Source of the DNA: Cercospora beticola
Lineage: Eukaryota > Ascomycota > Dothideomycetes > Mycosphaerellales > Mycosphaerellaceae
Length of the DNA stretch: 64,000 nt
NCBI RefSeq assembly: GCF_033473495.1
Contig: NC_088940.1
Coordinates: forward strand, 930,001-994,000
Direction: 5' to 3'
In this document: positions 4,147 through 54,025 of the stretch, piece by piece
Layout: each line of letters opens with the position of its first letter
Numbering within the stretch: the first letter of the stretch is position 1
Notes under the pieces: generated by a model
Database searches by the model: none
The model's input: only the letters and a program-made list of their open reading frames with translations
What the model was told of the DNA's origin: nothing
Program-made: the position numbers and the translations under genes

Positions 4147-7100
4147 GGAGACAGACGTGGGAGGAAGGTGAGGTGTATGGCTCTCGACAACGGCGCACTA
4201 TGGTTCGTCACCAGGCTCAAAGGGATCGGAGCTAAGCATCAGAGGGAATGGGAGGGCATTTTGTGTTATATGACAGGCGGCATCGCGTTGCAGCCCAATC
4301 GTTCTGCTATTCCAGTAAATTGCGGAACTCTGTGACGGGGGACGCACTTAACTTTGGAAGCTATAATACTCCCTAGCAGTCCACCCCAGCATTGTGGGCG
4401 GTAGGTGCAGGAGTCAGGCAGTTTGTCGCCTAGCGTAGGCCTGCAGGGCCGTTGCCGCAGACATGCTCCTGCTAGGAGGTCGGGCTGACGCATGGCTGCG
4501 ACTGAGTGCATCGACTGCTGCAACGGAAAGTCAACTGCACGCCGCTGTCCGCGCGCTGGTTGCAGCCAGCAGACGGGCATGGAGCTGGCTGAAAAGGACC
4601 AATGCAACAACCGCGTCGCCGAGCCGAGCCTTGCCTTTCTTTCTCATCAGTCCTCCCCTTCCCTACCCATTGACGCTGCGCTGCGCTACTGCAGCTCGGT
4701 GGTCGGAGGGCAGCGTCGGGCAGGGGAAGCTGGGTGTGCTGCGTGTGCGTGGCCGTGATGCTGAAGGCCTCTGTGATGCGCGTGTGGAGTGGAGCCCGCC
4801 CTCCATCCGCACGTCGCACCGTTGCACCACGACGCCGCCGCCGCCGCCGCCGCTTCTTCACGCCCGCGCGACGAATAATGGAAGGCGCCAGCAGCCAGCG
4901 AATAACGGGTTGCGAGACTTCTCGCCGCCCTCCACCACGTCTCGGGATTGGATCAGTGGCCCTTGCAGAAGGCAAAAATCCCATCAGAGCTCATGCTAGT
5001 TTGCGGCTGCATATCTGCGCTCGGTAAGTTTACTGCGATCCCACATGCACCACTGTACCTCTGGGCGCGCCAGGTGCTACTCGAGCTCCCACAACGAGCG
5101 CGCGACGGCGACGACACCGCCCGCGTCTGCCAATATGGCGAGATCCGTCGTGGGCGCCGCGGCGACTCAGCGCGCGTGGTTGATTATTCGCCTGCGACTT
5201 GGGCCTCCTCGCGTACAGTAGCTTTTCCACCTGACTTGCATGCGCGAACCGACACTCGGCTGCTGGAGCCGTGACGAGCGAAGATCAGCTGGAGATTCAA
5301 CCATGTTTCAGGAACTGACTCTCCGCGCGTCGCCGCACCGCGACATGACATATGCCACCCCGTGCGAGCTGCCCAGACGCGCCCAACTGCTCCGTATGTA
5401 TCATCGTCCGCCCGCTCGGCCCTCCTCGAAGCTCTGTTGCCGACAAACCTCGAACTGTTGAAGCACCGGGATCTCGTCCAGCATTGTCGTCGCCGCCTTC
5501 GCAGCTGACCGCCCGTTTCCCATGCCTCTGGTCCGGGAGTCGCGCAGAGTGTGCGTCCGCAGGCTGCAGCCGTAGCTCGCCGGGAGCTGGTCGTCCCAAA
5601 CGCCATTGCCGGGATGCAACTCTAAATTGTGGGCCGCCTGCTCTGTCACGACGCCGCCGCTGTGGCTGATCCATCCACATCCACAAGACACATCCATGCC
5701 CTGCTCACCACCAGCCAAACAAGCACCCGCACAGCTGCAGCAATCCATTGAAGTTCCCATGGTCGCACCTCCACGTCCCACGCACGTGGAAGCCGGTGCA
5801 CCTACGCCGTCGCACACGTCGTGCCGTCCACGCCGCGGTGCCACAGCAGACGAGCGACGCACGAGAACGGTTGGGTTGCGCCAGATGCGCAACAAGAAAA
5901 CCACGTCTCCGGAGAGCGCTGCAAGAGAAGTCATGTCTGGATACGGACAGGGTATCAGCATTGCGGAAGCTAACTCACCGCAACTACTGACGCCTGGTGG
6001 CACCGCACCGCGACAGTGTAGTCCTCGCAACGCGATTTCCTGATAGGACATGGGCGCATTCGTGTAGGCACTCCGCGACTCATGGCCGCGCTGAGCTTGG
6101 AAGCTGCGGCAAGCATGCAATGACGTGCGGCAAGTCAAAGCAAACCCCGTCAAGAACAAGGTCTGGGCCAGCACACTCTCACATTCAAAACTGCAGAGCT
6201 GGACTCCAAATTTCGCGGATGCGTTCACACCTCCCTTGTCGCCGACTGCTGTTCCTGCAAGGTCTGCGAGCGTACTCTTGTACAACATGGTCTGCCCGAG
6301 TCACACGATGAGCAAGTACCAGGTCACATCTGGACGATATCAGCATGTCGCATGCGACTCCCTCGACTCCACTGCCGAACACAGTCGTGAGCACCCGGAT
6401 GGGCGTGCAGGCCTGCACTTTTTCCAGCCGAACGGTTGAACGCCCAACAGAATCCACTCTGCCACAACGAATGCCCCTCGCATGTTTGCAATTGCAACAG
6501 CGAGTCGCACATCGCCATCTACGTTGCATTCATTGGTGTCGGTGTTGTGTCGCTACCGTTCCGTTCAGTCGGATTACTGTACACCGAAAGGACGCGAGCT
6601 ATACCGATTGGGCATAATCCTGGCGAATCGTATTGCTGGTGCCGTGCGCATTTGGATAACATACTGGTCCGTGGGATTTTGAGTAACTTGCGCGTGCAAT
6701 TTGGCAATTCGATCTCATTGAAGTGGAGTTCATATGAGGAATTTGTCATTCACGGTGATTTGTTCGCAGGCTGGACGTGCTCTTCCGCCTGACATTCATG
6801 TCGTTGGATGAAATGCTACTGAGGCTACCTGAGCAGACAAGGGTGACTGCAAGACGGCAATGGCGAGCTGTTGTGCGAGAAGTGGGATGATTTCCGGAGC
6901 GGACAGCCGCTTCATGGCCGTACTTACCCTCTGCACGCCAGCAGAACTCTAGTTGCCCCAAGGACCGAGACTGTATACCGGATTCGTGTACGAGATGCGT
7001 TCCAGTTTCGTCGATAGTACCACGACGTACTACAACCCTGCCTCACGACTTGTTCCTATCCTGGTCAATTCAATTTGGCTATACGATATCGGTCGGTTCA

Positions 7101-42876: not shown

Positions 42877-43725
42877 ATGCAGTACGCACTCACCTTCCTC
42901 GCCCTTGCGGCTGCCACCACATTCGCTCTCCCTACAGCAAAGCCTGCCGATGATGGCTCTTGGTACCCAGGCAAATATGAAGGCGGCAACACTGGCCTTG
43001 ACGACGGCAAGTGGGCTCCTGGCAAGTACAAAGGACCTGGCACCGGCTTCGACGACGGCAAATATCACCCATCAAAGCGCAACGATGATGGCAGCTGGTC
43101 GCCTGGCAAATATGAAGGCGGTAACACTGGCTTCGATGATGGAAAATGGTACCCAGGCAAATACGAAGGTGCGGGAACTGGTTTCGACGACGGAAAATAT
43201 CACCCAAAGCGAGCCGATGATGGTTCGTGGTATCCTGGCAAGTACGAAGGCGCTGGCACTCCGTATGATGATGGCAAATGGTATCCGGGCAAGTACCCTT
43301 CAAAGCGAAACGATGATGGTTCGTGGGCGCCGGGTAAATATGAAGGCGCTGGAACTCCATACGATGACGGAAAATGGTACCCGGGCAAGTACCCCTCCAA
43401 GCGTAATGACGACGGCTCCTGGGCACCAGGGAAGTACGAGGGTGAAGGTATTCCATACGACGATGGCAAATGGTACGAAGGAAAATACCCTGCCAAGCGC
43501 AACGATGATGGCTCTTGGGCTCCAGGAAAGTACGAAGGTGCAGGAACTCCCTACGACGATGGTAAATGGTACGAGGTCAAGTACCCTTCTAAGCGCAACG
43601 ACGACGGTTCTTGGGCTCCAGGAAAATATGAGGGAGCTGGTACTGGTTTCGACGATGGCAAGTGGGCGCCAGGAAAACATGAGGGCGCTGGTACTGGCTT
43701 CGATGATGGGAAGTACCACGGCTAA
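42877..43725 (+). CDS. Secreted Kex2-repeat protein (DDG[SK]W units)
   Basis: A 282-residue single-exon protein with a signal peptide (MQYALTFLALAAATTFA, cleavage near residue 17-20). The entire mature part is repeats. I count 17 units starting DDG[SK][WY], about 16 residues each, of the type DDGSWAPGKYEGAGTPY and DDGKWYPGKYP. They are grouped into seven blocks separated by six Lys-Arg dipeptides, the cleavage signal of the Golgi protease Kex2. Blocks 1, 2 and 7 hold three units and end GKYH(P); blocks 3-6 hold two units and end KYPSKR. No cysteine is present in the mature part. The layout is that of Kex2-processed repeat proteins, the class that includes pheromone, repellent-type and cyclic RiPP precursors. 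Products would be ~30- to 42-residue Trp/Tyr/Gly/Asp-rich peptides. No UstYa-type oxidase gene is nearby, so cyclisation is not supported here. Confidence 0.85.
   Translation: MQYALTFLALAAATTFALPTAKPADDGSWYPGKYEGGNTGLDDGKWAPGKYKGPGTGFDDGKYHPSKRNDDGSWSPGKYEGGNTGFDDGKWYPGKYEGAGTGFDDGKYHPKRADDGSWYPGKYEGAGTPYDDGKWYPGKYPSKRNDDGSWAPGKYEGAGTPYDDGKWYPGKYPSKRNDDGSWAPGKYEGEGIPYDDGKWYEGKYPAKRNDDGSWAPGKYEGAGTPYDDGKWYEVKYPSKRNDDGSWAPGKYEGAGTGFDDGKWAPGKHEGAGTGFDDGKYHG
42949..43722 (+). repeat. Coding tandem repeat, ~96 bp higher-order unit
   Basis: The region encodes 17 copies of a ~16-codon unit. In the centre, two-unit blocks repeat every 96 bases (32 codons). Synonymous differences between copies are numerous, while the amino acids DDG, W, PGKY and KR are kept, which points to selection on the peptide and not to recent DNA expansion. 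Confidence 0.85.
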
Positions 43726-44040: not shown

Positions 44041-44541
44041 TTAACATGAGTCCAGGGAGTCGCAAGGGTTCTTGAGGGCCTCCGGCTTGAGCAGTCTGAA
44101 CAGATCATATTGCGCGCAGAACTCCCGAGACTTGAAGAACTTTCCATCTACGCTGCCAACACGGAAGTTGAAGTAGAACTCGTCTGGGTTCGGGTCTCCA
44201 GAGCCTTGCTGAAGGCCCGCAGCTTCTGGGTTCGAGTACTTGTAGATGACGTCCAGGAAGCGAGTGTTGTCCTTGTTGAGGAAGACGTCGAAGACAGTGT
44301 CGCTTGTGGCGTTGTCGGCGCGAGCGCAAGGAACACTCCAGTATCCGTCGCTCTCTTGGTCGAGGTTCTGTCCTTGGCAGATGATATCTTCTGGGTTGGT
44401 AGCGTTGTTGTTGTTGGCGTCGTCCCAGCTGTAGACAGAGAGCTTGGTGTCTGTGAGGGTGGCATTGAAGTACAAGCAGGCGTTGGCGCCAGCGAAGAAA
44501 GTGCTGGCCACCGCCAGGAGAGTTGCAGAGGCGGAACGCAT
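44041..44541 (-). CDS. Small secreted protein, six cysteines
   Basis: A 166-residue single-exon protein. It starts with a clear signal peptide (MRSASATLLAVASTFFAGANA). The mature part begins CLYFNATLTDTKLSVYSWDD and has six cysteines (about residues 22, 55, 71, 142, 159 and 166), an even number consistent with three disulfides, plus Asn-X-Ser/Thr glycosylation sites (NAT, NAT, NATS). It contains PDEFYFNFRVGSVDGKFF. The family is not recognised. Size, secretion and cysteine content are those of fungal small secreted or effector-like proteins, but no host role can be claimed from sequence. It converges with the Kex2-repeat gene, so the two form a small secretory island. Confidence 0.78.
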   Translation of the reverse strand: MRSASATLLAVASTFFAGANACLYFNATLTDTKLSVYSWDDANNNNATNPEDIICQGQNLDQESDGYWSVPCARADNATSDTVFDVFLNKDNTRFLDVIYKYSNPEAAGLQQGSGDPNPDEFYFNFRVGSVDGKFFKSREFCAQYDLFRLLKPEALKNPCDSLDSC

Positions 44542-46355: not shown

Positions 46356-49300
46356 TCAGGAGTGATATGTGGTCGGTGGAGGATGTTTCGCAGGGTCGTT
46401 GTAGTATATCATCCCACTCGACAAATGTCTGCTTTTGGAACGTTTGTGTATATGAGGCTTCCAAGACTTCGAGTTTGACTTTGACGGAGTATTCCCAGAT
46501 GAAGAGGAGGGTCTGCCAGACGAGCTGCTTGGTCTAGAGCTCACTGGCGAGATCTTGTCCTTGATCTTGCGTAAGATGCTAGGAGACTTTTCTTGAAGGG
46601 AAACGATCCTTCGGTCAGCGTATGCAGCTTGTTGTGATTCTGCCACGGAAGGCTCATAGCCCAGCGAGTGGTTGATCCTGGAATCGGCTCTGCTCTGAGG
46701 TCTGCCTCGTGGGGTGCGCGGAATGTTTGGTTCGGGAGAGGCGTCCGAGACAACTCTTGGCGGAGCGAAGAAGTCAGCGGCCTCCTTGGTGCGCATCAGG
46801 AAATGTTGAGGCACGGGAGGGTGCTTGTTCGAGCCGCGTCGAGCTTTCATCGGCTGTGAAGTCGCTTCTGGAGAATCCCTACTGCCAGGGAAGAATTCTC
46901 GTGGCCTTGAACTCGATCGAGGGAGAGATTGCTCGGTACGAGGACTACTCGTGCGTTCACGCGTTCTTGGCCTCGCCCGGTCGACTTCCAAATCTTTGAA
47001 CGGCAGATGGGGCGAACTCTGACTTTGCATGCTCGCATGACCACTGAGGATTGGCACATCGTCGCTCTTTCTGGCTGCACGTGGCGCGCCAATATTGCTC
47101 TTACGCTCGGCAAACAGCTGTTCGGACTTGTTCGTGATGTCTCCGTATGCAGCTTCGAATTTCGATGGATCCATAGAAAGATCTCCTTCCAGCCGTGACC
47201 TAGTATTCAAGAGTACGGAAACGCGCCGATCGTAGTCTCGCGTGATGTTCTGGAACTCCTCAGCGTGCTTCAGAGCTATTTGAGATTTGCGTTTTGTGAT
47301 GCGTTTGTTGTAATCGTCGACCAGCTTTTGTTCAGCTGTACGAAGCGCGACAGCAGTATCCATAGGCAGGCTGGTCAGCATTGCCGAGCGTTCGGCCGGG
47401 TCTTGAAAGTCTGCGCCGTATTTCGCAATAAGTTTCTTGCGGTCTTTCACGAACTGAGCGTGCTGTTCGGAGCTGATGATTTGCTCCATTGTGTCCTTGT
47501 CCTTCGCGAGAGCTGCGACTTTGGCGTTGTAATCTGCCTGCAGTTCGTCTTTGGCTCGTTGAAGTCCACTAACATGCTCATCGATCTTACGTGCGAACAA
47601 GGCCTCGTTGGCGCTGATCACACTGCCAAGCTCCGACAACTCTGCTCGGGCATTATCGAGATAGTCTTCGAAAGAACGCGATTGCCATGCTGCCTCAACG
47701 TCCGCGCGAGCTTGTCTGACGCCTGGACTTAAAGGTGTCATGGGCCTTGACGAGCTCGTGTTGCGGCGTGCGGCTTTGATCGGCGTGAATGAAGCCATGT
47801 CTGCTTTGGGCTCGACGGGCATGTCCTCAGTCTGCACCAAGGCGTTTGAAGAGCTTCGTGAACTTTCTCTCGGCCTAGAACGTTGTTGCAGGAGCATCTC
47901 CAGCTCCTTGACCAGAAATTCATTCTGCCGTGAAACTTCGTTCTTTTCCTCCTGCCTTTTCTTGAGCATTGCTTGCATGGTCGAACGTTCTTCTTCAAGC
48001 GTGTTGACTTGTGCAACCAATTCCGCAACTTCTTCGCGAATCGCGACTGACGCTCGAGGCGTGGCAGACCCCCCAGAGTGCTTACGCTGCAATTCACGCA
48101 GCGATGACTGGACCTGCTCTAGTTGCGTAGTCAGATCGTCCTTCTCGCTGACAAGAGCTGCGATCTGTGCCTCGTTGCCAGATTTGGCGTCTGCAATGCG
48201 CTTATCAGCAGTCACGAGCTGTTGACGGAGAGCAGCAAGAGATCGCTCGGCCTCAGCCTGGCCAGTCATGGTAGCATCAAGTCTGGCCTGCAAAGCCTCG
48301 ACTTCAGCTTTGTATGCTGCTTCTCGAGACGCTCCCTCAGTCTCTCGCTGCAGACGCGTACGTGCTTCAAAATCGGCGAAACTAGCACGATGTTGCTCCG
48401 TGAGGCGTGCCATTTCTGTTCGCTGAGCTTCCAAGGTGCGAGCGCGCTCCTGTGTCAGAGCATCTTCGTGCGAGGCGAGAAGTGAATTACGGTCGCGTTC
48501 AGCGGCTTCCTTCGCCTCGTTCAACGCCAGCTCCAGATCCTTACGGTGAACACGCTCCAACTCCTGAAGCTGTGTTCCTGACGCCTTCTCAGCTGCTTGA
48601 CGAATATGTGACATTGCGTCTTGGTGACGCTTTTTGAGATTCCGGACTTCAGCCTGACTGCCAGACCGCGCCTTTTGGACTGCAGTTTCAAGAGCGGTCT
48701 TGTGTTGCTCCTCAGCAGCTGCAGCCTGCTCGTCAGCCTCACGGCGAGCGTCAGCGATTGCTTTTGATATTGCGTCGGCATGTAGTTGGTCTAACTCCTT
48801 AAGCTTTGAAGCAGCGGATGCATCGTTGTTGGAAAGCAGCTCCGTCAAAGACTGTGCGTGTTCAGCCTGCAGTTCCTTCAATTTGTTGGCCCACGTGCTG
48901 TCGTGCTCTGCAATAGCTCTGGTGTGGCTGGTCTTTGCTTCATCAAGCTGCACCTTGAGCGTCGCCTGCAGTTCATCAACAGACTTGCGGTGCATATTTC
49001 TCGTAGCATCGAGTTCTCCCTCAAGTGCAAGTCTGACACTCGCAAGCGCTTGTTCGTGCTCACTCCGAAGTCGTTCAAGCTCGTGCTGTGCCTCTGAAAG
49101 TGCTTTGTCGTGCTCGAATTTCATCGTCGTGATTTCAACTTGGGCCTTTGCTGCTGCTTCTGCCAATCTTGCCTCGAGTGTTGATCCGCCTTCAGCTCTC
49201 GCAATCGCCAGTGCTTTCATGTTGTCGTGACGCATCCTCTCGATGTCGTCTGCCGCAGCCTTCTTGCTCGCCTCAAATTCCTGCTCACGCTTACTCTGTC

Positions 49301-52300
49301 GTTCTGTAAGGGTTAAACGCAGATCGTCCAATCGTTGTTGATGCTGGCTGGCCAGTATCTTGAGCTGCTGATCATGTCCAGTTTGCAATTGGTGAAGAGC
49401 CTCTCTGTGCATGGACTCTGCAGCTGCCTGCGCCTGACTGTGCTCACTACGAAGGTCCTCCAATTGTGACTCGCCTTTTTGACGCGTCTCTGCCAGCTCG
49501 GCATGATGGTCCATTTCGCGATCACGGTCCGATTTGTTTGATCGTTCATGCAGTCTAGCCAATTCTTCCTCGTGTTCCTGAGTAAGCTTTGTAATCGCAG
49601 CTTTGTGGTCACGTTCCACAGATTCCTGCGTCGCGGTCTTGATGGCATCGATGTGCGCGGAATGTTCAGACTTGATCGTCCCAATCGCTTCACTGTGCTC
49701 CGCCTGAAGTTGAACTAGTTTTGCATCGTGGGCAGCGACTGTCTGCTGATGCCGGGCGGCCTCATCACTCAGACTAGCGTTGATAGCTTCCAGTTCAGCG
49801 CTGTGCTTGGTTTTCAAGTCCTCGAGGAGAGCATCATGGGCTGCTTGTGCCTTGCCTACGCGCGACAATGCGTCTTCGACTTCTTGGCGCAATTGGTCCT
49901 TCTCCGTTGCACTCTTTGTTTGGAGATCCTCGATTTCGGCAGCCCATTTGAGTCGAGCCTGCTGCAGTTCTTCAGCGTGGGCATCACGAATCTGTTGTGT
50001 CAATTTCTCGTGTTCGGCAACCAGGTCACGTTTCACGCCCTCGCCGTGCTCACGACTTGCATTGATGGCCGACAAGTGCTCGGACCTCAGCCGGCTAAGA
50101 TCTTCCTCCAGATCGCGCACGATCTTGTCCTTAGCGTGCTGATGTGCATGGTGCTGGGCCTCAAGCCTGGTCAGTTCATCGCCATGCTCCGCACGCGCTT
50201 TCGCCAGGGCTTCTTCGTGAGCGCGAGCAAGCTCTTCCTTCAGATCGTTCACGTCTCTCTCCTTAGCTTGCTGTTGAGCGTGATGCTGAGCTCTCAGGGC
50301 CTGAAGTTCTTTGCTGTATTCCGCGCGTAGTTCCGCCAGGGCTCCTTCATGGGTCGCAGCAGTACCTGTCGAGTGAGACGTTGCCTCCTCGAGTTTTCCC
50401 CGCAATTTTGCTTCTGCCTCCTCGTGCCTGGCCCGTGCTTCCTGTCGGTCCTGCTCGTGTTCAGCGACTAAGTCCGCCAGCGCCTTGCCATGCTCCGTGG
50501 TCTTGCACTCGAGTGCGGCTACGTGCACGTCTTTTAGACTTGCTATTGTCCTCTGGTGGTCTTCCTCGAGCTTTGATACTTTCTGTTCCGCTGCGGTCGA
50601 AGCAGCACTAGTTGCCTCAGTATGCTTCGCCACCAGCTGTCGTACTTCGGCCTCATGTTCAGATTTGATCGAGATCAAAGTCTGCTCGTGAGCTGTCTGT
50701 TTCTCTTGCAGTTGTCGTTGCAATTCAGAAATTTGTTGCTGGGTCCTCGTCCTTTCTTGCTGCATCGTCTCAGCATGCGAGGCCTCGGTATCAGTGAGAC
50801 GTTTCCGACTGGCTTGTTCGATCTCGCCTTTTTGCTGCTGTAAGACTTCGAGCGCATTACGCAAGGACGATGCCTCCTCCAGCGAATCATCACGTTTCTT
50901 GCGTAGTTCTTCTAAGCTATTCTTGACCTCGTCCAACCCAGCGCTTTTGGTTCTAAGCTGTTCGGCGTGAGCAGCTCTGGCACCTTTCAGCTCCACCTGA
51001 GCTTCTTTCTGCGCTGATTCGCGTTCGGTGCGCAGGCTAGTGAGGAGGTTCTGGGCATGTTCTTTGCGAAGCTGATCCATTTGATTCGAATACTCATCCT
51101 TGAGCTCTGCACTCTCGTAAGCGTGCTGATCTTCACTTTCCTTGAGTCTGGCAGCCCCTTCGTTACGGACGCGCTCGAGTTCCACCTCATGCGTGGCTCT
51201 GAGCTCGTCAGCGGTCTTCGTGGCCTCTTTGTACTTGAGACCAAGGTCGACAGCATGTTTTGTGGCCGTTTCGTGCTTGGTCTCGACTGCGCTCAGTTTC
51301 TGTTCTAGGTCCATGTTCAGCTTTTCTCGTTGGGCCAATTCAGCAGTCAGACTGTTGCAGCGACCGTGGGCGTCTTGGAGCTTCTCCTGCAAAGCCTTCT
51401 CAGCGTCACTACGCTCAGCAGTGAACTTCTCCAGGTATGCAGCAGCGTCTTTGTTCTCGCGTTCCAGCTTTGATAGCTTCGCGCTAGTGTCCCGAAGTGA
51501 AGCCTCGACATCCGACTTGAGTGCGTGCAGTCGTAAGATCTCCTCCTGAGCAGACTTGTGCGCAACATCTGTGCTTCGCTTCTCGGTTCGGAGATCGTCA
51601 AAGGCCTTTGACTTCTCCTGCAAAGAGCGCGCACCATCCTCAATCTTTGCATTCAGCTCTTCAACCCATTTCCGAGTTGCTTCCAGCTCGTTGTTGAGCG
51701 AAGTCTTCTCCTTCGTCGCTCGTGTTAGCTGCGCTTTCGTATCTCCAAGCTCACCCTTGAGCCTCTCCTTCTCGCGAACAACATCAGCTTCCAGTTTGCC
51801 CGTCTCAGTGGCCAGTTTCTCTAGCTCGGATTTCAAAAGATCCCGCTCCTCTACAAGATGATTTGTTCGAGCCTTCGCAATCTCCTTCTCCTCAGTCAAG
51901 CGATCCAATCGCTCTTCTGCGCTCTGCAAGACATGGTCGCGGTTGTCTCTCTCTTGTTTCAGCTCCTGCTCCAATTTCGCTTTTTCCGTCTGTAGTCTGT
52001 TTCGCTCGTCATTGAGTAAACGCTCCAGTCGGTCCTTGTCTCTTTGAAAGGTCTCTTCCAAATGCGCTTTCTCCAAATGCAAGGCGTCTCTTTGCCCTGT
52101 CAACAGATCCACGCGCTCTTCAGCGTTCTCCAGAAGGCTTTCGAACCTCTCCCTTTGGATCTCCAGGGCTTCATTCGCCTTCTCTAGCTCTTCGTCGCGC
52201 TCGTCGAGCACGCTTTCAACCTCACTCTCACTCTCAGTCCCAGGATCAATCTGGCTCGCCCTCCTGACCAGCGCATGCTCCTGTTCCTTCGCCTTCTCTG

Positions 52301-52622
52301 CAGCTTGTTGCTGTTCATACTTAATTCTCCTCTTCAGAGCATCGAGCTCGTGGAATATGTGCTCCTTCACCACAGGCTCCTGTTTCTTGTTCCTGAATAC
52401 CACAGCGGTTATGCTACCAGATATCTGCTGTCGGTTGCTTTCGGCACGCGTAATCAACCTCTTTATGTGCTCAATCTCTTGACTGATACTCCTCGGTCCT
52501 CCCACCACCGTTGAATGCGATGACTCTGGTCGCTCGGTAGAATCGCTCCATGCTCGCGAGGGCGGCCGAGAACTAACGTGAAAGGAGCCACTGGCTGAGC
52601 GCAAGATGCCAGAATCGTTCAT
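46356..52622 (-). CDS. Giant coiled-coil protein, 2088 residues
   Basis: One uninterrupted frame starting at 52622 (MNDSGILRSASGSFHVSS). A short Ser-rich head with a conserved-looking segment ISQEIEHIKRLITRAESNRQ is followed by ~1500 residues of heptad-rich coiled coil (Glu/Lys/Ala/Leu/Arg/His). Much of it repeats REH/SEH-x3-L patterns, including a 44-residue internal duplication encoded at about 50069-50332. After the rod lies a region with PMTPLSPGVRQARADVEAAW, a shorter coil (YNKRITKRKSQIALKHAEEF), then a disordered Ser/Arg/Pro tail with RERTSSPRTEQSLPRSSSRP. No motor, kinase or membrane domain is seen. The build suits a cytoskeletal, spindle-pole or septal tether, but the family is not recognised and the role is inference. 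Its end lies 133 bases from the RidA gene. Confidence 0.88.
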   Translation of the reverse strand: MNDSGILRSASGSFHVSSRPPSRAWSDSTERPESSHSTVVGGPRSISQEIEHIKRLITRAESNRQQISGSITAVVFRNKKQEPVVKEHIFHELDALKRRIKYEQQQAAEKAKEQEHALVRRASQIDPGTESESEVESVLDERDEELEKANEALEIQRERFESLLENAEERVDLLTGQRDALHLEKAHLEETFQRDKDRLERLLNDERNRLQTEKAKLEQELKQERDNRDHVLQSAEERLDRLTEEKEIAKARTNHLVEERDLLKSELEKLATETGKLEADVVREKERLKGELGDTKAQLTRATKEKTSLNNELEATRKWVEELNAKIEDGARSLQEKSKAFDDLRTEKRSTDVAHKSAQEEILRLHALKSDVEASLRDTSAKLSKLERENKDAAAYLEKFTAERSDAEKALQEKLQDAHGRCNSLTAELAQREKLNMDLEQKLSAVETKHETATKHAVDLGLKYKEATKTADELRATHEVELERVRNEGAARLKESEDQHAYESAELKDEYSNQMDQLRKEHAQNLLTSLRTERESAQKEAQVELKGARAAHAEQLRTKSAGLDEVKNSLEELRKKRDDSLEEASSLRNALEVLQQQKGEIEQASRKRLTDTEASHAETMQQERTRTQQQISELQRQLQEKQTAHEQTLISIKSEHEAEVRQLVAKHTEATSAASTAAEQKVSKLEEDHQRTIASLKDVHVAALECKTTEHGKALADLVAEHEQDRQEARARHEEAEAKLRGKLEEATSHSTGTAATHEGALAELRAEYSKELQALRAQHHAQQQAKERDVNDLKEELARAHEEALAKARAEHGDELTRLEAQHHAHQHAKDKIVRDLEEDLSRLRSEHLSAINASREHGEGVKRDLVAEHEKLTQQIRDAHAEELQQARLKWAAEIEDLQTKSATEKDQLRQEVEDALSRVGKAQAAHDALLEDLKTKHSAELEAINASLSDEAARHQQTVAAHDAKLVQLQAEHSEAIGTIKSEHSAHIDAIKTATQESVERDHKAAITKLTQEHEEELARLHERSNKSDRDREMDHHAELAETRQKGESQLEDLRSEHSQAQAAAESMHREALHQLQTGHDQQLKILASQHQQRLDDLRLTLTERQSKREQEFEASKKAAADDIERMRHDNMKALAIARAEGGSTLEARLAEAAAKAQVEITTMKFEHDKALSEAQHELERLRSEHEQALASVRLALEGELDATRNMHRKSVDELQATLKVQLDEAKTSHTRAIAEHDSTWANKLKELQAEHAQSLTELLSNNDASAASKLKELDQLHADAISKAIADARREADEQAAAAEEQHKTALETAVQKARSGSQAEVRNLKKRHQDAMSHIRQAAEKASGTQLQELERVHRKDLELALNEAKEAAERDRNSLLASHEDALTQERARTLEAQRTEMARLTEQHRASFADFEARTRLQRETEGASREAAYKAEVEALQARLDATMTGQAEAERSLAALRQQLVTADKRIADAKSGNEAQIAALVSEKDDLTTQLEQVQSSLRELQRKHSGGSATPRASVAIREEVAELVAQVNTLEEERSTMQAMLKKRQEEKNEVSRQNEFLVKELEMLLQQRSRPRESSRSSSNALVQTEDMPVEPKADMASFTPIKAARRNTSSSRPMTPLSPGVRQARADVEAAWQSRSFEDYLDNARAELSELGSVISANEALFARKIDEHVSGLQRAKDELQADYNAKVAALAKDKDTMEQIISSEQHAQFVKDRKKLIAKYGADFQDPAERSAMLTSLPMDTAVALRTAEQKLVDDYNKRITKRKSQIALKHAEEFQNITRDYDRRVSVLLNTRSRLEGDLSMDPSKFEAAYGDITNKSEQLFAERKSNIGAPRAARKSDDVPILSGHASMQSQSSPHLPFKDLEVDRARPRTRERTSSPRTEQSLPRSSSRPREFFPGSRDSPEATSQPMKARRGSNKHPPVPQHFLMRTKEAADFFAPPRVVSDASPEPNIPRTPRGRPQSRADSRINHSLGYEPSVAESQQAAYADRRIVSLQEKSPSILRKIKDKISPVSSRPSSSSGRPSSSSGNTPSKSNSKSWKPHIHKRSKSRHLSSGMIYYNDPAKHPPPTTYHS
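50069..50332 (-). repeat. 132 bp in-frame duplication in the coiled coil
   Basis: Two adjacent 44-codon units can be aligned at both base and protein level. Each has RAEx2xEL, AQHHA(Q/H)QxAK, a D-L-(K/E)-E-(E/D)-L stretch and a helical end. Base identity is moderate, so the duplication is old and the heptad phase is preserved. Confidence 0.6.
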
Positions 52623-54025
52623 CGTTCCAGTGCTTGACAGACTATGACCAAGCTGGTGATCTTGCCATCGTGGGTCGGCAATGCTACGCCTTGGGCGTCT
52701 ATTTCGGAAGAATGCCTGTTCGCGCGGATGGCGGTCTGTATGGATTACAAGTACTTTCTAGCCCAAGAGGACAAGCCAATGCAGAACTGTCCAGCCCAAT
52801 GCAGGATCCAAGCTAGTGAGTATGCAGAGTGACTACACGTCGGTTCATGCCGAGTCAGTTACGAAAGCATATCGCACTGTCCAATAGACAAATGAGAATA
52901 GGGAGTGAAATGTGAAGAAGCTCGAAAATTGTGAAATGGGGTACTACCGGCTCTCAAGTGAGCAATCTATGACTATGACATGTTGAAGGTTGATGCAGGC
53001 ATGTTCGTGGTGAGGCTGGGTAGCTGATGGCTCTCTCCACTGCTGGCCCGAGACTGGGTCTCGGCGCGGTGCGTACCTCCGACCTGACCTTGCCTGGCCG
53101 TCTTCACCCGGCATATCGACATTGTGTGCTGTCACTGCACGCGCCGTCATTGAGTAAACTTGCGTTCAGCTGGCCGAACGACAACGCAAGCATTGCCCAC
53201 CAACCCTTGCCTTGCTTCGGTCCAATCTTGGCTTGAACTGAACAAGTTTGCCAGCAGCAGGCTAACTAGTCGCTTTCAAGCAAGGGCAAGATGACGGTGC
53301 TGCGCCCTCTACGCAACTGAGTTGGATCGAACTGGTTTGGCTCTGGTAAAGCGCAAGTATGGCTCACAGCGATCGATCATTTACATGAGACGCAGTGGGA
53401 GAGTTCGACCCATCTGCTTTAAAACAGTGATTTGGATGCACGAAGAGTACAATCTCAGAAGGTACAGTGTCGGTGTCTTGATACGAGATGAGCCAGTACG
53501 GGAGCAATGATTCTTGCGTACCGAGCGTCTTCGTGACTATGTGAATGCTTACTGCATCGACTTTGTGCTCCAAGCCTGTTTCGCCGCCTGCCTCAGTGGC
53601 TGCCTCCTAGCATCAGACTCGAGAACAGACTCGTTCACGAGCTCGCTTTATGTAGGCACGCCGATGTATCTGCAGCATTGACAACAGACCTGTTCCGTTC
53701 TGCAATGTGCATCGAGACGCTGAAATATCGGTCCCGCCAATCTGTAATGCTTGCCAGCCGTTCCGATGTTCGCAATATCCGCGAAAAGTGAAGCATTGAA
53801 AGTGGCGGCTGTGGTGCGCATTGCCAGTACATGGTGATGCTCAGATCTCTTTCGTAGAGACACCACACCACCAGCCTGTCCCTTCCGAATGCTGGTCATC
53901 GTGAAATGATATCCACCCGCGTGCACTATGGCGACATGACCTGTGCGCCGTCCCAATGCTGCGGGTACCATGACCCCAATAAAAGTACATCCCTCTGACT
54001 CCATCGTCCGTGCTCTTGTCCGAGG
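52623..54025. other. Gene-free stretch upstream of the coiled-coil gene
   Basis: 1.4 kb covering the coiled-coil gene promoter and the 3' flank of the gene ending at 54026. A 118-codon frame on the minus strand (53648-54004) begins 22 bases beyond the end of that gene and has no domain; I do not call it. Confidence 0.4.

What the first reader, a model, noticed from the sequence alone, without database searches (positions are those of the whole stretch)
42877..43725. Kex2-cut secreted repeat precursor with 17 Trp/Tyr-rich units
A signal peptide is followed only by repeats: 17 DDG[SK][WY] units in seven blocks separated by six Lys-Arg sites. The block order is symmetrical: three-unit blocks at both ends, four two-unit blocks in the middle. 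The lack of cysteine and strict retention of DDG, W, PGKY and KR despite many synonymous changes imply selection for released peptides. Known biology: fungal Kex2-processed repeat proteins include pheromones, repellents and dikaritin RiPP precursors. No nearby UstYa-type oxidase was seen, so this may be a distinct secreted-peptide or surface-coat system.
Basis: partly seen in the sequence, partly recalled or inferred. Interest (0 to 1): 0.8.

Follow-up and report, generated by a model that had tools for sequence, protein, structure and literature searches.

The report
Trp/Tyr repeat peptide precursor, enzyme-tag module
A fungal gene encodes 17 near-identical tryptophan/tyrosine-rich units in seven blocks separated by Lys-Arg sites, so its protein is predicted to be secreted and likely cut into seven small peptides; the same two- or three-unit module also sits on proteins of two phospholipid-degrading enzyme families, which suggests that it would work as a binding tag as well as a free peptide.

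Summary
ORF 42877-43725 (+) is a 282-aa protein without an intron: a hydrophobic leader, then 17 DDGx[W/Y] units in seven blocks separated by six Lys-Arg sites, no Cys. The block order is 3-3-2-2-2-2-3, not symmetrical, and PGKY is not strictly kept (11 of 14 W units). Synonymous change between copies is near saturation while protein change is small. Thirty-nine relatives were found, mostly ascomycete where named. Across them, units inside a block are 17 residues apart with no dibasic site between (81 of 82), while other spacings mostly hold one (45 of 60). Apart from a signal peptide judged by eye, it meets the published working definition of a KEX2-processed repeat protein (KEP). One kexin gene was found; no UstYa match lies within 311 kb. 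New here: the same module is fused, with no Kex2 site after it, to a GDPD-family enzyme in this genome and in Cercospora kikuchii, and to a lysophospholipase-family protein of unnamed source. I read it as a portable binding module, released as free peptides and also kept as an enzyme tag. Processing, ligand and function are untested.

The parts
42877..43725 (+). Whole coding sequence of the repeat precursor (282 aa plus stop), no intron
42877..42927 (+). Predicted signal peptide MQYALTFLALAAATTFA (by eye; cut expected after residue 17)
   Evidence: translation; no predictor available
42928..43080 (+). Block 1: LPTAKPA leader plus three units (SW, KW, KY), ends KR at 43075-43080
43081..43212 (+). 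Block 2: three units, ends KR at 43207-43212
43213..43308 (+). Block 3: two units, ends KR at 43303-43308
43309..43404 (+). Block 4: two units, ends KR at 43399-43404
43405..43500 (+). Block 5: two units, ends KR at 43495-43500
43501..43596 (+). Block 6: two units, ends KR at 43591-43596
43597..43722 (+). Block 7: three units, ends GKYHG at the stop codon
   Evidence: similar C-terminal ends in P0003, P0004, P0010, P0014

Best explanation
This gene encodes a predicted secreted repeat precursor of the KEX2-processed type, whose 17 DDGx[W/Y] units, in seven blocks with a fixed 17-residue internal period, are likely cut apart at six Lys-Arg sites into seven linear peptides that likely act as small extracellular binding modules. 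Expected route (inferred): the signal peptide is removed, kexin cuts after each KR in the Golgi, a Kex1-type carboxypeptidase trims the KR, and peptides of about 30 residues (two units, four blocks) and about 42-49 residues (three units, three blocks) leave the cell. The same module is placed (shown) right after a KR at the N-terminus of a GDPD-family protein, with a Gly-rich linker and no further dibasic site, and at the C-terminus of a lysophospholipase-family protein. There it would stay attached, so its most economical role is to hold something: a cell-surface, wall or phospholipid ligand through its Trp/Tyr/Asp-rich face (inferred). The free peptides would then coat or compete for the same ligand.
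For: Architecture and codon-level constraint. Homologues with the same leader-block-dibasic plan in Verticillium, Fusarium, Fulvia fulva (Mycosphaerellaceae, as is Cercospora; six units, two KR boundaries) and Pyronema. Fixed 17-residue spacing: of 82 unit pairs at 17 residues, 81 have no dibasic in between; of 60 at other spacings, 45 do. A dibasic lies within 6 residues upstream of 38 of 49 block-first units away from the N-terminus and of 0 of 82 inner units. Between the units, residues not used for selection are kept: K78, Y75, E76, G78, T73 of 82. One P-domain match in the genome, in an ORF with an S8 protease domain, i.e. a kexin. Fusions: GDPD in this genome (L003, module and catalytic start in one ORF) and C. 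kikuchii P0013 (94% identical over 1-473), PLA2_B in P0014. Three Fusarium relatives are reduced to one intact two-unit block after KR (P0027, P0028, P0032), so a single module can be kept alone.
Against: No peptide, cleavage or binding data. Neither the whole precursor (mean pLDDT 45, 13 sequences) nor one block (49, 7 sequences) gives a confident fold, which fits linear peptides better than a folded binding domain, though the alignments are shallow. 15 of 60 other spacings lack a dibasic (10 of these in the weak member P0012), and 11 of 49 block-first units lack one upstream. The enzyme fusions rest on two orthologous GDPD genes and one unnamed partial protein; a search with the GDPD module region found no further fusion (2 hits among 19 candidates). 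The proteins are related, so the spacing counts are not independent events.
Confidence: 0.45

Rival explanations
1. An ordinary KEP: the peptides are signals or interaction peptides (towards the fungus itself, plants or microbes) and the enzyme fusions are incidental domain shuffling with no shared function.
For: KEP criteria met apart from an untested signal peptide; characterised KEPs act mostly in biotic interactions according to PMC9769878 (discussion read); Fusarium relatives keep a single canonical block after KR.
Against: The same 17-residue-period module occurs on two different lipid-enzyme families and is placed so that it would remain attached, which a receptor ligand would not need.
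Confidence: 0.3
2. A Tyr/Lys-rich multivalent surface adhesive or coat that works mostly uncut; the KR sites only allow later shedding.
For: 17 aromatic units here, 28 Tyr and 32 Lys, very hydrophilic; dibasic sites are missing at several boundaries in relatives.
Against: Relatives with one or two blocks exist, so high multivalency is not required; all six Arg sit in KR at block ends, and KR is kept at 2 of 2 boundaries in Fulvia P0021 and 3 of 3 in Verticillium P0001.
Confidence: 0.15
3. A dikaritin-type RiPP precursor: Tyr/Trp side chains are cross-linked by a UstYa-family oxidase encoded elsewhere.
For: Repeat plus KR plan and conserved Tyr; the genome holds many UstYa-family stretches (63 matches).
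Against: Nearest UstYa match on the same contig is 311 kb away; the seven neighbours with a Pfam match show no such family; 30-49-residue blocks are far longer than the known short cyclic cores (recalled).
Confidence: 0.06

Closest known systems
KEX2-processed repeat proteins (KEPs; Le Marquer 2019 PMC6339444, Umemura 2020 PMC7329392, Vogt 2022 PMC9769878)
   Same: Leader, at least three near-identical blocks, KR between blocks, repeats over most of the protein
   Different: Each block is itself built of two or three units with a fixed 17-residue period; the core is not among the conserved cores named in the text of PMC6339444 section 10; the module also tags enzymes.
GH128 protein 365456 of Coprinopsis cinerea (PMC9769878, passages read)
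   Same: A KEX2-cut peptide and an enzyme domain in one secreted protein
   Different: There the peptide is flanked by KEX2 sites and was detected as a free peptide; here no dibasic follows the module, so it would stay on the enzyme
Ustilago repellent Rep1 peptides (recalled; cited in PMC9769878)
   Same: Kex2-cut repeat precursor, surface role possible
   Different: Repellent peptides form surface-active amyloid-like fibrils (title of a cited paper); this mature protein is very hydrophilic, GRAVY -1.6
Bacterial choline-binding / cell-wall-binding repeats (recalled)
   Same: Short Gly/Trp/Tyr repeats of about 20 residues used as non-catalytic enzyme tags
   Different: Resemblance by eye only; no Pfam, NCBIfam or PDB sequence match for the window protein

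Membership tests
KEP | N-terminal signal peptide | tested here: inconclusive
   Hydrophobic leader ending TFA-LP seen in the translation; no predictor run
KEP | At least three repeats with KR, RR or KK between them | tested here: met
   Seven blocks, six KR; criterion as in PMC6339444 methods passages
KEP | Repeats cover at least 15% of the protein | tested here: met
   Blocks make up nearly all of residues 18-282; criterion
KEP | A kexin protease in the genome | tested here: met
   One P_proprotein match, in an ORF that also has Peptidase_S8
KEP | Peptides actually released | not testable with these tools
   Needs mass spectrometry
Dikaritin RiPP (UstYa-linked) | UstYa/DUF3328 gene close to the precursor | tested here: not met
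   63 UstYa matches in the genome, none in the window; nearest on this contig at C6:1284726, 311 kb away
Ascomycete alpha pheromone | Ste13 signature (XA/XP) after the KEX2 site | tested here: not met
   Residues after the six KR are ND, AD, ND, ND, ND, ND; Ste13 preference as in PMC6339444
Known repeat or binding domain (Pfam, NCBIfam, PDB) | Match to a described family | tested here: not met
   0 families for the window protein in Pfam-A and NCBIfam at E up to 1, 0 PDB sequences at E up to 10

The most novel reading that the evidence does not exclude
The 17-residue-period DDG-W module is an undescribed fungal binding module dealt out in two forms, as free Kex2-released peptides and as permanent tags on enzymes that act in sequence on phospholipids (lysophospholipase, then glycerophosphodiesterase). 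Its aromatic/acidic face would bind phospholipid head groups or the hyphal wall, so the free peptides steer or compete with the tagged enzymes during phosphate and choline scavenging.
Probability: 0.22. Interest if true: 0.75.

Novelty: new variant of a known kind. Interest (0 to 1): 0.5.

Why it matters
KEPs are widespread in fungi and their functions are largely unknown (abstract of PMC9769878). A peptide module that is also fused, uncut, to enzymes of known families gives a rare handle: the tagged enzyme hints where and on what the free peptide may act, so the function of a KEP becomes testable by simple binding and localisation assays. It would also add a cysteine-free, apparently linear module to the fungal non-catalytic enzyme tags.

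Tried and rejected
Rejected: (a) low-complexity artefact or wrong frame: other frames are also open over long stretches because the repeat length is a multiple of three, but only the annotated frame combines third-position change with the highest amino-acid identity. (b) Symmetrical block order. (c) A UstYa cluster near the gene. (d) More copies in the genome: the strict pattern gave 14 hits, 12 in this ORF and 2 in the GDPD, control 0. A shorter GKYEG pattern gave 16 hits (control 4): 8 here, 1 in the GDPD and 7 elsewhere; none of those 7 shows a DDG unit in the 70 residues translated round the match. More diverged units could be missed. (e) A stable fold: two predictions, both low confidence, so no fold search was run. 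(f) Motif in print: text searches for PGKYEG, DDGKW, DDGSW, GKYEG, YDDGKW and others gave 9 and 3 papers whose titles and abstract starts look unrelated (only listings seen). (g), a search with the GDPD module region, found only P0001 and P0013 among 19 candidates, so the spread of the fusion is not known. (h) Paper searches: listings only; the three KEP papers came.

Papers, what was seen: PMC6339444 passages and section 10; PMC7329392 passages and part 1 of 2 of section 6; PMC9769878 outline and abstract, passages and discussion. No supplement was read.

Counts: searches used all 39 proteins returned plus the window protein; none was dropped. The searches scored only the 7,990 and 7,993 candidates sharing most words, so the family is a lower bound. 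P0012 (Boletus, 29% identity) and P0038 (Blastocladiella, partial) are weak members and may not be true homologues (P0038 may be contamination). P0001, P0008, P0009, P0011, P0036 and P0039 look like faulty gene models in part (by eye). The structure alignment A2 held 13 sequences (window plus 12 of the 16 hits); the search alignment A1 held 10, five of them trimmed. The ten neighbour ORFs are a choice from the ORFs; the 2,133-residue frame at 46359-52757 among others was not scanned.

Full report
What is there. The window lies at C6:930001-994000 of a 36.07-Mb, ten-contig genome. A GDPD gene elsewhere in it is 94% identical to that of Cercospora kikuchii, so the host is probably a Cercospora species (inference). 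ORF 42877-43725 encodes 282 aa without an intron. After a hydrophobic leader come almost only repeats: 17 DDGx[W/Y] units, 14 with W and 3 with Y, in seven blocks of 3,3,2,2,2,2,3 units divided by six KR sites. All six Arg of the protein lie in these KR pairs. None of 20,000 shuffles gave six KR, and no more than three units arose in any of 2,000.

Selection. The four two-unit blocks differ at 16-27 of 93 bases but at 1-5 of 31 residues, with dN 0.035-0.117 and dS 1.7-2.1 in three pairs and not computable in three. Of 460 differences in the 26-codon cores, 298 are at third positions, and the annotated frame keeps 82% identity against 35-72% in the other five. Three Arg codons are used in the six KR sites. 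So the protein sequence, KR included, is kept while the DNA drifts.

Relatives. Three searches gave 16, 2 and 38 hits, 39 different proteins in all; searches scored only a capped list of candidates. Where named, they lie in Dothideomycetes (Fulvia fulva, Cercospora), Sordariomycetes (Verticillium, Fusarium, Sarocladium, Apiospora) and Pezizomycetes (Pyronema), with weak members in Boletus and Blastocladiella (lineages of five species checked; the rest from general knowledge). Fulvia fulva, in the same family as Cercospora kikuchii, has a 113-aa version with six units in three blocks and two KR boundaries. Several Fusarium versions have decayed units but keep an intact two-unit block at the end, mostly just after a dibasic site (P0007 is an exception).

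Rule of the family. Over all 40 sequences, unit pairs 17 residues apart hold no dibasic site in 81 of 82 cases; pairs at any other distance do in 45 of 60, and 10 of the 15 exceptions come from the weak member P0012. A dibasic site lies within six residues upstream of 38 of 49 block-first units away from the N-terminus and of 0 of 82 inner units. The 11 without one are in P0003, P0004 and P0005 (two each), P0007, P0009, P0011, P0014 and P0033; some of these are inner units whose predecessor the pattern missed. P0011 has a run of units with no dibasic site between them and P0014 has none at all. The sequences are related, so these counts are not independent.

Enzyme fusions. In this genome the only other place found with the module is C3:618082-618207. 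It is the N-terminus of a GDPD-family protein: leader, KR, two units, Gly-rich linker, then the catalytic domain, whose start (ISHRGA) is in the same open frame. The C. kikuchii orthologue P0013 has PF03009 at 127-410 and only one dibasic site, the one before the module. P0014, a partial protein from an unnamed source, has PF01735 (lysophospholipase) at 25-210 and then a three-unit module at its end, with no KR, RR or KK at all. So the module is placed where it would remain on the enzyme. A search with the GDPD module region showed no further fusion.

Processing machinery and surroundings. The genome has one P-domain match, in an ORF of at least 760 aa with subtilase and P-domains, i.e. a kexin. 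UstYa matches are many (63) but the nearest on this contig is 311 kb away. Of ten neighbouring ORFs scanned (a choice), seven match Pfam families: alcohol dehydrogenase, aldo-keto reductase, PP-loop, Snf7, INO80F, kinase and flavin monooxygenase families; three have no match. They do not look like a biosynthetic cluster (inference). No Pfam, NCBIfam or PDB sequence match was found for the protein, and AlphaFold2 gives no confident fold for the whole (mean pLDDT 45) or one block (49), on shallow alignments.

Interpretation. By the working definition in the methods passages of PMC6339444 this is a KEP, the signal peptide being judged by eye. The cores named there as conserved across species (section 10 read) do not include this one; supplements were not read. 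Vogt 2022 (discussion and passages read) describes a secreted GH128 protein with a peptide between KEX2 sites, detected as a free peptide. Here the site lies only before the module, so the enzyme would keep it. The simplest single role for a module that is both released and kept on two lipid-enzyme families is binding. Shown: the architecture, its constraint, the spacing rule and the fusions. Inferred: secretion, cleavage, trimming, binding, and any link to phospholipids.

Noticed in passing
window 44041-44541 (-): Convergent neighbour: 166-aa ORF with a hydrophobic leader and several Cys, no Pfam match; looks like a small secreted protein.
   Followed up: partly
L003:4020-5498 (G000 C3): GDPD-family gene with the two-unit module at its N-terminus and, by eye, an intron near 4472-4530; probably the second member of the system in this genome.
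   Followed up: yes
P0039: Unit-like stretch followed by KR and a Cys-rich region (CVPGTGFQVCSNGFRGCC); no Pfam match. Perhaps a third kind of fusion, or a faulty gene model.
   Followed up: partly
P0036, Apiospora: Middle of the protein looks like the repeat read in a wrong frame; probably a gene-model or frameshift error.
   Followed up: no
P0006-P0008, P0017-P0020, P0022, P0023, P0025-P0028, P0032 (Fusarium; P0026 unnamed source): Earlier units more or less decayed, the last two-unit pair kept, and a Cys gained in its linker (GDCT); a possible change of product in this lineage (by eye).
   Followed up: no
P0038, Blastocladiella britannica: A unit pair with 17 spacing in a partial protein of an early-diverging fungus; homology, transfer or contamination not resolved.
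   Followed up: no
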